NCBI GenBank assembly: GCA_947258435.1
Contig: CAMYID010000023.1
Coordinates: 186,001-250,000 of the forward strand
Source of the DNA: an uncultured Alphaproteobacteria bacterium
GTDB taxonomy: Bacteria > Pseudomonadota > Alphaproteobacteria > UBA11222
Direction of reading: 5' to 3'
DNA length: 64,000 nucleotides
Made by a program: the position numbers and the translations under genes. Below are positions 49,445 through 63,538 of the stretch, piece after piece. The notes beneath the pieces were generated by a model. It did not search any database and was not told the origin of the DNA. It worked only from the letters and a program-made list of their open reading frames with translations. The stretch's first letter is position 1; each line of letters begins with the position of its first letter.

Positions 49445-52400
49445 TTAGTTGGGTATCGGCTGACTTTGCAAATCCATCGGCAATCCCAGCGCACCAAGCT
49501 TGCGCCGCGGGCCCGCATCAGGTGCCTGATCCGTATCATCGCGGCGCGCTTCGGGACGCGGCTGGAACCGGTCCTGCTCCACCTCATCGGTCACGAAATA
49601 AGGATTGCCATCGGGCCCGATATAAAGCCGCTTCTGTTCTTCAAGTGTGAAGGGGCGCGAACCGAGCCGTCCGAAAACCGCGATCTGCCCACCGGTTTCA
49701 TCAACGCCCCGATCCCGGTCAAGCCCCTTGGACAACGACGTCGCCGGCCAGCGTGTTTCACGCCAGGCAATCAACTCAGGCTTGGGTTCGGGACTGAAAC
49801 CGTAAAAGCGCGGCTGACTATCGGGCGATGTCAACTGAATGACCTTAAGGCCATTCACCCCATCGGCGACATAGGCAAACAGTGACGCATTGGTCGATCC
49901 GACCACCACATCACGGGCATCGCTTAACGCACCGTCGGCGGTGTATTTCTGGTAGACCGTGGGCTTTTCGGCATTTTCGATATCGATGATCGCCAGCCCT
50001 TCGCTGCCCGCCGCCACATAGGCATAAGTCCGGGCAAGATAGATCCGCTGCGCATCGGCCAATGGTGCCAGCGCCCCGTCAACATGGCGCGGTGCCTGCG
50101 GGTCCGTTACATCGATAACCTCAAGCCCTTTTGCCGTACTGACGAACAGATAGCGGAACTGCAGCGCGGTTGCACGGGGATCCTGCATCGGGATCTGCGC
50201 AACAAGCTGTGGCTTCAGCGGATCAAACATCGACAGCACAACGATATCGCGCGGCGTTGCGATATAGAAATAACTGCCTGCAATCGTGATATGGCGCGCG
50301 CCGTCAAGCACACCGTTCTCATTCCAGGTAAGCGCGCGTTCAAAGAAATTATTGCGCGGCTCCCCGTCAGCCAGCGTTGTGACATCGACAACGATCAACC
50401 CTTCCTCGCGGTCGGTGATGAAAGCATAGCGATAAATTTCGTGCATTTTCTGCTCCTGATTTGTCTTCAGGATCAGATCGCCCTCATTGAGATCGATGTT
50501 GATATTCTGATTGGTCGGCAGTGCAACGCAACTCGCATCGCGCGTTTCCAGATGGGTGTCGTGCCCTGGCGCAGCAAATGGCGCGGTGATGATGCGATCC
50601 GAAAAGCCCTTATTGGCAATCGCATTCACATCATAGGCCTGAAAGCCGTTTTTGCCTTCGGCGATGAACACATATTCACCGCGCAACATCAGACACCCCA
50701 CATTGCCCGCTTTCTGGGTGTAGGCTTCGGGTAGATTGCGTTGCCGGTCCAGATGCTGCTGGTACCAGTCGGGATAGGCATATTTGTGCAGATAGCTGCC
50801 CAGTACCGCCTGCGGTTCGTCCCACTCGGTCACGCGCACCGCTTCAAAGCCGCCTTCCGCGCCGACATAGGCGTTGAAACCGACAAGATTCACGAAATTG
50901 GTCCCGTGCAGCATAAGCTGCGCCATGATCGCATTATTGTCGTTGGCTTCCGACAAATGACAATCGGTGCAGGTCTTTGTTTCCGTCTTCCGCGCGGTAT
51001 GCGGGAAATGCGGCGCAAAAGCCTGACTTGAATAGCCCGAAGCGGCAATCGGCGGCTGCTGAACGTAAAGACGTTCGCGATTGATATTGGTCGAAGACAG
51101 TACCAACGCAGAGGACGACCGGATCGGAGCGATCGTGTTGCCTTTCACCGTTGCATTAATCCCGAGCTGGAACATCTGATCACGGACAACCTGCGGATTA
51201 TAGGTCGCATAGTTCCGCGTTTCCCCGCCTTCAAAGTGATTGCGCGCGGTTTTCCAGTTTGCCTCGATCGGCAGATGGCACCCGGCGCAGCTCGTCGTCC
51301 AGGAGAGATGGCAGGTAAAACACTCCATCTCCTCATCCTTGTGGGCAAGGTTCTCGGGCGACACACCGGGCCCCCAATCGAACGGCGCATCGGCGGTGCC
51401 CAATTTCGACATCAGCTTGGCGCGTGCCGCCTTGGCATTGAATTCCTTGTGTCCGGGGTCAACGCTGTCCTTGACGAGCGACAATTCCCATTCCAGATCC
51501 CCGTCAAGCATCGAGCGCTGATAGAGCTTGCCATCCACCCACTGAAAGCGGCGCTTGCCGAACGGCGTATAGCTCAGCGACAGATCCTTGCCTTCACCTT
51601 TGGCGGCCGGTCCGCTGGTCCGCAATGAGGGATAACGTTGCGCCGTGCCGTGGCAATCGTCACAACGGATTTCAATCGCCGCTGCCGCCTCGCCATACAG
51701 ATGCCCGTCGCCGTGCACATCCTGCTCGAAATGGCAATCCACGCAATGCATGCCCTTTTCCAGATGGATAGATTTCATATGCACCGCTTTCTGGAACTTA
51801 TCGGGATCGTCGGGATCAACGATATTACCTTCCGCATCCAGCAGATTGCCCTTGCGGTCCTTCTTGAAAATCGCGCGGAAATTCCAGCCATGGCCGTGAT
51901 AGTCGGCAAATTGCGTATTCTTGAGCTGTGGATTAAGCAGCGACACATCCTTAAGGAAATCCGGATCGGACCATTTGCCGCGGATTACCGCCCCTTCAGG
52001 ATTGCGTTCAAGCGCTTCATGCTGCTCCGCATTTGTGGGATAGCGCTGCTCCTCAGGCCACATGAACGGCGCATCGGATTCATAGTCCCACATGGTGTAA
52101 CCAAGATAGGAATTCACAAAGATATTCGGCTGATGCATGTGGCAGTTCATGCATTGCGCCGTCGGAATGGCGCGGGTGAATTCATGCTTGAGCGGATGCC
52201 CGGGCTCATCCTTGGGGATCGTCGGATCAACCGTCTGCGTCAGCCCTGTATTGCCATATTGCGCATAGGGCCCGGAATTATAGGGATCGCGGTCATTCGC
52301 ATAGGGCACATGGCATGCACCGCAGCCCGATGTGCGGAAATCGCCCGGATTATCATTTGTGCCCAAAAACCACATGAAGGGGTCATTAAGCCGGGTCTTG

Positions 52401-61144: not shown

Positions 61145-63538
61145 TTATCTTCCCTGCGATACGATCTTGAAAAACTCGGACGGATTCACCCGCAACGCCG
61201 CACCGGTCGGGCAGGCGCGAACGCACGAAGCACCCCCTTCAATATCCTTGCACATATCGCATTTGACGGCCTTTTTCGCGCCCCCCTTGCCATGCGCCGC
61301 AAGCCATTCCGCATCCGGCTGCCCCGGCCCCGGCCCGCGGCCGAACAGCAGCCATTGCAACAGCCCCGGCTTCTTGGGCTGCGGCGCCGCCATGTGGATC
61401 ACACCGTAAGGGCAGTTCCGCTCGCAATTGCCACAGCCAATGCAGGAATCGCTGACATAAACCTCGCCATTCGGATTACGCCGCAGCGCATCGGGCGGAC
61501 AATCCACCATGCAATGAGGATGCTCGCAATGCCGGCAGGATGTCGGCACATGAATCGACTCATAAGTCGGCCCGGCCTCCCGATTCAGGCGCGATTGCCC
61601 AAAATGGGTTTCCGCACACGCTTTTTCACAATTATCGCAGCGGACACACAAGGCCTCATCGATCAGCAACACATCCGTTGCCTCCCCAAGCCCCTGTTCA
61701 ACCAGGAACTGGATAATCCCGCCCGCCTGCGGCTGCTTGGTGCTTTCGATATTTTCAAGCATCCGGCCGCGATATTTTTCTTCCATCAGCTCCCGCACTG
61801 ACGGGTTGCGCTCCATCAGCTGCTGAAATTTCTCCCCGTCCAGCCGCAGCGCCTCGACCGGCACCGCGGCCTTGATGGTCGCTGAACGCGGCGCATTGCT
61901 GATCAGCGCCATCTCGCCGACATAATTGCCCGCCGCGACATAGGAAATCACCGATTCCTTACCACCGATCTCGCGCGAGACGGTCACCGAACCACGCTGG
62001 ATCAGATACAGGCAGTCCCCTGCGTCCCCTTCCCGGAACAGCACATCGCCCTGATCGAACTCTTCGACCTGAACTGCGTGAATAAGCTCCTCAAGTTCCT
62101 CCATCGGGATGCCGGGCGCGATATAGGTCTGGATCTGCCGGCCAACGGCCACCTCATCCATAACGCGCTTGACCGCCTCCACCGAGTTGATCAGCTTGAT
62201 CATTGTCCGGCGCGGCGTTTCGATCAGCAGCGAAGGCTGTGAGGCCAGCACCGTCGCTGTCCGCCGGCGCCCGGACAGCAGCCCCATTTCACCGAAGAAC
62301 GCCCCCTGCCCGAGCCCGACGGTAACGGAAGGATCGTCGGGATTGACCTGAATATCGACGCCGCCATCCACGATCGAGAAGAAGCTGTTGGTATAGTCGT
62401 TGCGCTCAAACACAATATCGCCCTTGGTGGGCGTGTGAACATCGCTATCGATCAGAAATTCGCGCAGTTGCAAGGTCGTCAGCCCCGCCAGCAGCGGTAC
62501 CGAATCCTGAATATGTGCAATCACCTCATCAACCGGCGGATTGCCCGGGAGATTGCGGAATTTTTCCTCAAGCAGCGGCTCATCCGCAGGTTTGACGTGA
62601 TTGCCCTGTATATATTCGACAACCTCATAGCCCTGGTTCATCGCCTGCTTGATCAGCGGATAACCCGCCAGCGCACCGATGATGTAGAGCCCGGGCACAT
62701 TGGATTCATATTCGCCACTTAATTCAGGTAGTGCCGCCGGGTCATCGCTGGGAAATTCGATCCCGCAGCTTTCCACGAATTTACGGGGCGGAATAGCGCC
62801 AAGCCGCGCAATCACACGGTTGCAGGCAACCTTGGTCTCACCTTGCGGCGTTTTAAGGATGATACCATCATCTTCGACCCGCAAAGGCGACGCACTGTAA
62901 AGGCACTCAAGCTCGCCCTTTTCGATGGCAGCGGTAATCAACGAATTATTACCCTGCTTCGCACGGGCGAATTCGTCGCGGCGATTGACGATGACAACAT
63001 TGTTCTGCTTCGACAGTGCCACCGCATTTTCAATCGCGGCATCACCCGCACCGACCACGACGATCGTTTCATCGGCATATTCATCAGGGTCGTCGAGCTG
63101 ATACTGGATCCATTCGCGATCCTCGCCCTCCACCCCCATCTTGCGCAGGTTACCCTGCAGGCCAATCGCAAAAATAACGAATTCGCAGGTCAGCGTATCG
63201 CCATTGCCCAATGTCAGCGTGAAGTCGCCCTTACTGCCGCTGATCGCCGTAACTTCAGCCTTGTAGCGGACATTGACCACATGCTTTGCGGCTTCATCGT
63301 CCCAGGTCTGCAGAATGTCTTCGCGAATCCCCATGGCAAAGGACATATCGCTGCGCAGCGGCAGGATATCGGGCGTTGCCATGACAAGCTTGCCCTTCTG
63401 ATACTTGTAGATCGTATCAGACAGATGATCGGTCTGTTCCAGAAGCACATGAGACACACCGGTAACGGCGGCATGACCGGCCGCACTCAAGCCGCCAGGC
63501 CCGGATCCAACGATCGCTACCTTAAAATGCTCCCCCAC
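61145..63538 (-). CDS. FAD/NAD(P)-dependent oxidoreductase fused to two cyclic nucleotide-binding domains and a polyferredoxin (4Fe-4S) module
   Basis: VAIVGSGPGGLSAAGHAA, VVVGAGDAAIENAVAL; FGEMGLLSGRRRTATV and VGEMALISNAPRSATI; CVRCDNCEKAC, CRHCEHPHCMVDCPPDA, CIGCGNCERNCPYG, CDMC...CVRACPTGA. Confidence 0.92.
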   Translation of the reverse strand: MGEHFKVAIVGSGPGGLSAAGHAAVTGVSHVLLEQTDHLSDTIYKYQKGKLVMATPDILPLRSDMSFAMGIREDILQTWDDEAAKHVVNVRYKAEVTAISGSKGDFTLTLGNGDTLTCEFVIFAIGLQGNLRKMGVEGEDREWIQYQLDDPDEYADETIVVVGAGDAAIENAVALSKQNNVVIVNRRDEFARAKQGNNSLITAAIEKGELECLYSASPLRVEDDGIILKTPQGETKVACNRVIARLGAIPPRKFVESCGIEFPSDDPAALPELSGEYESNVPGLYIIGALAGYPLIKQAMNQGYEVVEYIQGNHVKPADEPLLEEKFRNLPGNPPVDEVIAHIQDSVPLLAGLTTLQLREFLIDSDVHTPTKGDIVFERNDYTNSFFSIVDGGVDIQVNPDDPSVTVGLGQGAFFGEMGLLSGRRRTATVLASQPSLLIETPRRTMIKLINSVEAVKRVMDEVAVGRQIQTYIAPGIPMEELEELIHAVQVEEFDQGDVLFREGDAGDCLYLIQRGSVTVSREIGGKESVISYVAAGNYVGEMALISNAPRSATIKAAVPVEALRLDGEKFQQLMERNPSVRELMEEKYRGRMLENIESTKQPQAGGIIQFLVEQGLGEATDVLLIDEALCVRCDNCEKACAETHFGQSRLNREAGPTYESIHVPTSCRHCEHPHCMVDCPPDALRRNPNGEVYVSDSCIGCGNCERNCPYGVIHMAAPQPKKPGLLQWLLFGRGPGPGQPDAEWLAAHGKGGAKKAVKCDMCKDIEGGASCVRACPTGAALRVNPSEFFKIVSQGR

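What the first reader, a model, noticed from the sequence alone, without database searches (positions are those of the whole stretch)
49445..63538. Seven-gene block predicted to encode a complete trans-envelope electron conduit
Seen: seven same-strand genes, mostly with gaps of 0-16 bp or ATGA overlaps (one gap of 163 bp). They encode a cytoplasmic flavo-FeS protein, a membrane protein with haem-b-like His pairs, a membrane-anchored decaheme cytochrome, two secreted proteins, an outer-membrane barrel and a secreted decaheme cytochrome. That gives 20 predicted c-type haems. Established: porin-cytochrome conduits (MtrCAB, PioAB, Geobacter Pcc complexes) combine periplasmic multihaem cytochrome, barrel and outer cytochrome. 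Inference: this operon moves electrons between NAD(P)H/quinone and an extracellular partner, in either direction. The combination of FHA, cyclic-nucleotide-binding, GlcG/HbpS and LVIVD modules does not match any conduit I can name.
Basis: partly seen in the sequence, partly recalled or inferred. Interest (0 to 1): 0.92.

Follow-up and report, generated by a model that had tools for sequence, protein, structure and literature searches.

The report
Hybrid NAD(P)H-to-outer-membrane electron pathway
This seven-gene block, found in the same order in many aerobic bacteria, looks like a pathway that carries electrons from the cell's NAD(P)H through the inner membrane to cytochromes and a barrel protein at the outer membrane; its inner half matches a little-studied proposed system called PCC4, while its outer half is, as far as I could find, undescribed.

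Summary
In detail: seven same-strand genes with 20 CXXCH haem motifs, a two-haem-b membrane protein and a barrel protein. It is not chance. The order recurs across Alpha-, Gamma- and Betaproteobacteria. In 246 class genomes, all 15 with the LVIVD-decahaem protein also have the flavo-FeS and FHA-decahaem proteins. All 20 haem sites are conserved.

The inner half (flavo-CNB-FeS protein, cytochrome b, FHA-like decahaem) matches the putative PCC4 conduit of He et al. 2017, including its WX3HX13H and SGXXG motifs and the Fe-S gene upstream. So it does resemble a described candidate. The outer half (HbpS protein, 18-strand AlgE-like barrel, LVIVD decahaem) is not PCC4's pentahaem and porin, nor MtrB/PioB. 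Other genomes pair the same inner half with what looks like PCC4's own outer half, so the system is modular. The block is also incomplete: a conserved tetrahaem c554-family partner lies on another contig in this genome.

Best reading: electrons flow NAD(P)H, FAD/4[4Fe-4S], two haems b, decahaem, tetrahaem, then an outer-membrane decahaem complex, possibly gated by cyclic nucleotide. Crossing of the outer membrane, direction and partner are unproven. New variant of a known kind; interest 0.6.

The parts
61145..63538 (-). g1: cytoplasmic flavo-CNB-FeS protein, 797 aa: YpdA/TrxR-like FAD/NAD(P) domain without a conserved CxxC, two cyclic-nucleotide-binding domains, C-terminal 4x[4Fe-4S] (16 conserved Cys)
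60148..60981 (-). g2: inner-membrane two-haem-b protein, 277 aa, W79-x3-H83-x13-H97, SGVFG at 120, W251-x3-H255-x13-H269; both motif types in 62 of 65 homologues
   Evidence: motif definition from PMC5566968
58367..60139 (-). g3: FHA-like cytoplasmic domain, one TM helix near residue 139, then decahaem c-type cytochrome domain (predicted periplasmic), 590 aa
57914..58366 (-). g4: small protein with apparent signal peptide, 150 aa, no family; recognised mainly in the alphaproteobacterial loci
55793..57910 (-). g5: secreted HbpS/GlcG-like protein, 705 aa (true start possibly 66-78 bp further in)
53326..55776 (-). g6: outer-membrane barrel, 816 aa: signal peptide, unconserved P/Q/Y-rich stretch, then predicted 18-strand AlgE-like barrel
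49445..53323 (-). g7: secreted decahaem cytochrome with C-terminal LVIVD beta-propeller, 1292 aa

Best explanation
The block is a modular envelope electron-transfer system built from a PCC4-type inner half and a different outer half. g1 oxidises NAD(P)H on FAD and passes electrons through four [4Fe-4S] clusters, probably gated by a cyclic nucleotide at its two intact CNB domains. g2 carries them across the inner membrane on two b haems. g3's ten bis-His haems take them into the periplasm. A tetrahaem c554-family cytochrome encoded elsewhere in this genome probably relays them. g7 (decahaem plus propeller), held at the outer membrane with the barrel g6 and the HbpS-like g5, delivers them to a partner at or beyond the outer membrane. 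Shown here: gene content, motif conservation, co-occurrence, and exchange of the outer half. Inferred: every electron-transfer step, the outward direction, and exposure to the cell surface.
For: Same gene order in three proteobacterial classes. Among 246 class genomes g1 is in 20, g3 in 21 and g7 in 15, and all 15 g7 genomes have g1 and g3. Cofactor ligands are near-invariant: 16 Cys in g1, four His in g2, ten CXXCH plus ten His in g3, ten CXXCH in g7. g2 has the PCC4 IMP motifs in 62 of 65 homologues, and g1 carries the PF13247 Fe-S domain directly upstream. In loci L086, L088, L089, L095 and L102 the same g1-g2(-g3) inner half stands beside a pentahaem cytochrome (c22) and another barrel-like protein ending in Phe (c21). 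The tetrahaem c554 protein neighbours g1 or g5 in many loci and exists in this genome. In Sphingobium the inner half (g3-g2-g1) and the outer half (c554-g5-g6-g7) are two divergent groups. An RRDEFARAK stretch in g1 resembles the NADPH motif of thioredoxin reductases (motif from own knowledge). Both CNB cassettes keep the conserved Glu and Arg.
Against: The predicted 18-strand AlgE-like barrel may be too narrow to sheath a decahaem as the larger MtrB barrel does. g7 has a plain signal peptide and no lipobox, so it may be periplasmic. g7's haem region folded with low confidence (mean pLDDT 57) and has no solved relative. Strong residue conservation in g7 (328 of 1292 positions at 97% or more) would also suit a catalytic protein. 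No expression or biochemical data exist.
Confidence: 0.5

Rival explanations
1. g7 is a periplasmic or outer-membrane-bound enzyme fed with electrons by g1-g2-g3 and c554; the AlgE-like barrel lets its substrate or product pass and carries no electrons.
For: The barrel matches solute/polymer channels (AlgE, OprD/Occ) in the PDB, and MtrB is not among the 50 best hits. g7 lacks a lipobox and is highly conserved with more invariant His than ten haems need. ExtI of Geobacter is a precedent for a porin tied to soluble-oxyanion reduction (PMC5877670).
Against: No catalytic motif is known; g7 carries a large propeller typical of binding or surface proteins; other genomes couple the same inner half to a quite different barrel and multihaem pair, which fits a generic electron supply to the outer membrane.
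Confidence: 0.3
2. Electrons flow inwards: the system oxidises an extracellular donor such as Fe(II) or Mn(II) and feeds the quinone pool through g2, as He et al. proposed for PCC4.
For: PCC4 was found in Fe(II)/Mn(II)-associated bacteria and modelled this way (PMC5566968). A 10-CXXCH 'forkhead-associated' cluster was counted in 27 FeOB genomes (PMC10734462). A haem-copper oxidase exists in this genome.
Against: g1 is an NAD(P)-type flavoprotein; reducing NAD(P)+ with Fe(II)-level electrons is strongly uphill. Many carriers are isolates of genera known as aerobic heterotrophs (Sphingobium, Solimonas, Dokdonella, Tahibacter; lifestyle from own knowledge).
Confidence: 0.12
3. An assimilatory or protective reductase: NAD(P)H-driven reduction of ferric iron, haem or oxidants at the envelope, in the manner of ferric reductases.
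For: g2's two HX13H pairs are the ferric-reductase/NOX pattern (PMC5566968); g5 is HbpS-like, a haem-binding/degrading family; carriers are largely aerobic.
Against: 24 c-haems are far more than known assimilatory reductases use; no siderophore or TonB genes recur beside the operon.
Confidence: 0.08

Closest known systems
PCC4 putative porin-cytochrome cluster (He et al. 2017, PMC5566968), especially subgroup II
   Same: IMP with five TM helices, SGXXG and two WX3HX13H; decahaem MHC; PF13247 Fe-S gene upstream of the IMP; tetrahaem MHC (here unlinked)
   Different: No pentahaem MHC or PCC4-like porin in this genome; instead HbpS-like protein, AlgE-like barrel and an LVIVD-decahaem cytochrome
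MtrCAB / MtoAB / PioAB
   Same: General idea of decahaem cytochromes plus a barrel
   Different: No MtrB_PioB (PF11854) match in the genome; 18-strand AlgE-like barrel; inner half is NAD(P)H-linked rather than CymA-type
Geobacter extHIJKLMNOPQS (ExtM/ExtI; PMC5877670, PMC6148476)
   Same: g7 has partial similarity to ExtM (80.6 bits, mainly about 65 residues around haems 6-7); porin plus multihaem cytochromes and a b-type cytochrome
   Different: Far below the ExtM cut-off of 800 bits; 10 not 12 haems; LVIVD propeller; no rhodanese, Rieske or ExtKL-type gene
Uet (Tenderia, Gallionella; PMC10734462)
   Same: Porin plus several multihaem cytochromes and repeat-type (NHL) proteins
   Different: No 11-haem or 3-haem cytochromes, no peptidyl-prolyl isomerase in this operon

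Membership tests
PCC4 | IMP with SGXXG and two WX3HX13H motifs | tested here: met
   present in window g2 and in 62 of 65 homologues
PCC4 | periplasmic MHC with 10 haem sites | tested here: met
   (g3)
PCC4 | Fe-S gene with PF13247 upstream of the IMP (subgroup II) | tested here: met
   PF13247 at 6.9e-7 in g1, directly upstream of g2
PCC4 | MHC with 4 haem sites in the cluster | tested here: inconclusive
   tetrahaem homologue present in the genome but on contig C5, not in the cluster
PCC4 | MHC with 5 haem sites | tested here: not met
   no match to the pentahaem c22 in this 95% complete genome; a single-sequence query, so a very remote one could be missed
PCC4 | PCC4-type porin | tested here: not met
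   no match to c21 in the genome, and g6 and c21 profiles unrelated (hhalign probability 0.2%). That c21/c22 are the paper's PCC4 genes rests on gene content, not on its sequences
MtrAB/PioAB/MtoAB | MtrB_PioB family barrel | tested here: not met
   none in genome; best folds AlgE
Geobacter ExtM | score above NCBIfam NF040943 cut-off | tested here: not met
   80.6 bits against 800
Uet | undecahaem cytochrome plus 4- and 3-haem cytochromes in the cluster | tested here: not met
   haem counts 10 and 10 only
FHA phosphothreonine-binding domain | conserved Gly-Arg, Ser, His, Asn core | tested here: not met
   Gly-Arg in 62 of 63 and Asn mostly kept, but the Ser position is A/L/P/R
Thioredoxin reductase | redox-active CxxC | tested here: not met
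   all 16 conserved Cys lie in the C-terminal Fe-S region
AlgE / alginate export family | 18-strand barrel fold | tested here: met
   18 strands, best PDB hits AlgE (E about 1e-17, TM 0.53-0.57 by query, 10-12% identity); fold only, no Pfam match
[quoted passage not shown]
   needs biochemistry

The most novel reading that the evidence does not exclude
A cyclic-nucleotide-gated, NAD(P)H-driven cell-surface reductase spread among aerobic heterotrophs, in which one conserved inner-membrane module (flavo-FeS, haem b, decahaem, tetrahaem) is plugged into interchangeable, unrelated outer-membrane modules; here the outer module is a previously undescribed AlgE-like barrel with an LVIVD-propeller decahaem and an HbpS protein.
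Probability: 0.35. Interest if true: 0.85.

Novelty: new variant of a known kind. Interest (0 to 1): 0.6.

Why it matters
PCC4 was proposed in 2017 from a few dozen genomes and, in the library searched, I found no experiment on it. The present data suggest its inner half is one of the more widespread undescribed electron routes in Proteobacteria: at least 561 loci encode g1 relatives and about 8% of sampled class genomes carry it. It may be reversed in sense (fed by NAD(P)H), sits in genera usually thought of as ordinary aerobes, and can be fitted with unrelated outer halves. Cultured carriers such as Sphingobium herbicidovorans MH make it testable by simple gene deletion.

Tried and rejected
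Literature searches for FHA with multihaem cytochromes, LVIVD with multihaem, HbpS combinations and cyclic-nucleotide/thioredoxin-reductase terms gave no description of the full operon. ExtM membership was rejected on score; Uet on gene content; MtrB/PioB. The Tenderia undecahaem lead did not match. MHCscan (PMC11475568) may contain this cluster in supplements I could not open. PDB sequence searches gave nothing for g7 and only short c7/FHA hits for g3. The g7 model was too poor outside the propeller to place haems. Distance correlations between the genes (r 0.47-0.93) are in line with co-inheritance but have no control gene, so I give them little weight.
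Full report
What is there. Seven same-strand genes fill 49445-63538. In order of transcription: g1 (61145-63538), a soluble protein with a YpdA/thioredoxin-reductase-like FAD/NAD(P) domain, two cyclic-nucleotide-binding domains and a [4Fe-4S] region; g2 (60148-60981), a membrane protein; g3 (58367-60139), an FHA-like domain, one membrane helix and ten CXXCH; g4 (57914-58366), a small protein with a signal peptide; g5 (55793-57910), HbpS-like; g6 (53326-55776), a barrel protein; g7 (49445-53323), ten CXXCH and LVIVD repeats.

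Not chance. In other genomes of the family and class the genes recur in the same order and strand. A scan of 85,488 species genomes with g1 found at least 561 related loci; of the best 80, 53 carry a g7 homologue and most of the others are cut by contig ends or lack the outer half. They come from Alpha-, Gamma- and Betaproteobacteria, including the isolates Oceanibacterium hippocampi, Solimonas, Dokdonella, Tahibacter and Lysobacter. In Betaproteobacteria the order is g3-g5-g6-g7-(c554)-g1. In 246 genomes drawn from the class, g1 occurs in 20, g3 in 21 and g7 in 15, and every g7 genome has g1 and g3. Across 349 genomes of the phylum g7 is in 7.

Cofactor sites. Across 27-84 homologues per gene: g1 keeps sixteen Cys, enough for four [4Fe-4S], and no Cys pair in the flavin domain, so it is not a thioredoxin reductase; the conserved Glu and Arg of both cyclic-nucleotide pockets remain. 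g2 keeps H83/H97 and H255/H269. g3 keeps ten CXXCH and exactly ten further His, as expected for ten bis-His haems. g7 has ten CXXCH in 43 of 43. The FHA-like domain has lost the Ser used for phosphothreonine.

A known relative. He et al. 2017 (PMC5566968) proposed PCC4: a porin, MHCs of 4, 5 and 10 haems, an inner-membrane protein with five helices, SGXXG and two WX3HX13H motifs, and in subgroup II an Fe-S (pfam13247) gene upstream. Window g2 has all these motifs (62 of 65 homologues do), g1 matches PF13247 and g3 is the decahaem. Five loci (L086, L088, L089, L095, L102) put the same inner half beside a pentahaem (c22) and a barrel-like protein ending in Phe (c21), which looks like PCC4 itself. 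Profile comparison shows c21 unrelated to g6 and c22 unrelated to g7, and neither is in the window's genome. So the window operon is a hybrid: a PCC4-type inner half with another outer half.

An eighth part. A tetrahaem c554-family cytochrome lies beside g1, g3 or g5 in many loci and heads the outer group in Sphingobium and Sphingopyxis plasmids. In this genome it lies on contig C5 at 27986-29203. The block alone is therefore not the complete system.

The barrel. AlphaFold2 with 50 homologues gives 18 strands (mean pLDDT 76, pTM 0.78); the nearest solved folds are AlgE exporters, then OprD/Occ porins, with no MtrB among the 50 best. The genome has no MtrB_PioB protein. Geobacter's ExtB is also predicted to have 18 strands (PMC6148476), so strand number alone does not exclude a conduit, but an MtrA-like decahaem plug is not to be assumed. 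g7's propeller is predicted well, its haem part poorly.

Mechanism. I commit to outward flow: NAD(P)H, FAD, four Fe-S clusters, two b haems, ten haems of g3, four of c554, ten of g7, then a partner at or beyond the outer membrane. Shown: genes, motifs, co-conservation, exchange of outer halves. Inferred: all transfer steps, direction, gating and surface exposure. The main rival makes g7 an enzyme and the barrel its substrate channel; the second reverses the flow, as He et al. modelled for PCC4.

Verdict. Observation confirmed; interpretation partly supported; new variant of a known (putative) kind.

Noticed in passing
window 63785-64000 and L002 785-2308: The gene directly upstream on the same strand is a ccmI-like cytochrome c maturation gene; it is also upstream of the operon in related genomes (L016, cluster of 7 loci), fitting supply of c haems.
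   Followed up: partly
L106 8352-9725 (G000 contig C5): The unlinked tetrahaem c554-family gene lies near type II secretion/type IV pilus-like genes and a PNPOx-like gene; a similar PNPOx-like gene stands beside g3 and c554 in L021.
   Followed up: no
L104, L105: In Sphingobium herbicidovorans MH and Sphingopyxis indica the genes sit on conjugative plasmids, and S. indica pMC4 shows only the outer group in the stretch read, suggesting separate mobility of the two halves.
   Followed up: partly
L074, L053: Some betaproteobacterial loci have a DUF5916/CBM9-like protein next to g1, and L074 has two copies of a c554-g1-DUF5916 set.
   Followed up: no
L071, L077: Thiomargarita and Thiotrichales contigs carry g1 without any cytochrome gene nearby.
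   Followed up: no
G153, G362, G445, G530 (family f13): In one alphaproteobacterial family the g7 match is split in two within one open frame, suggesting an insertion inside the haem region.
   Followed up: no
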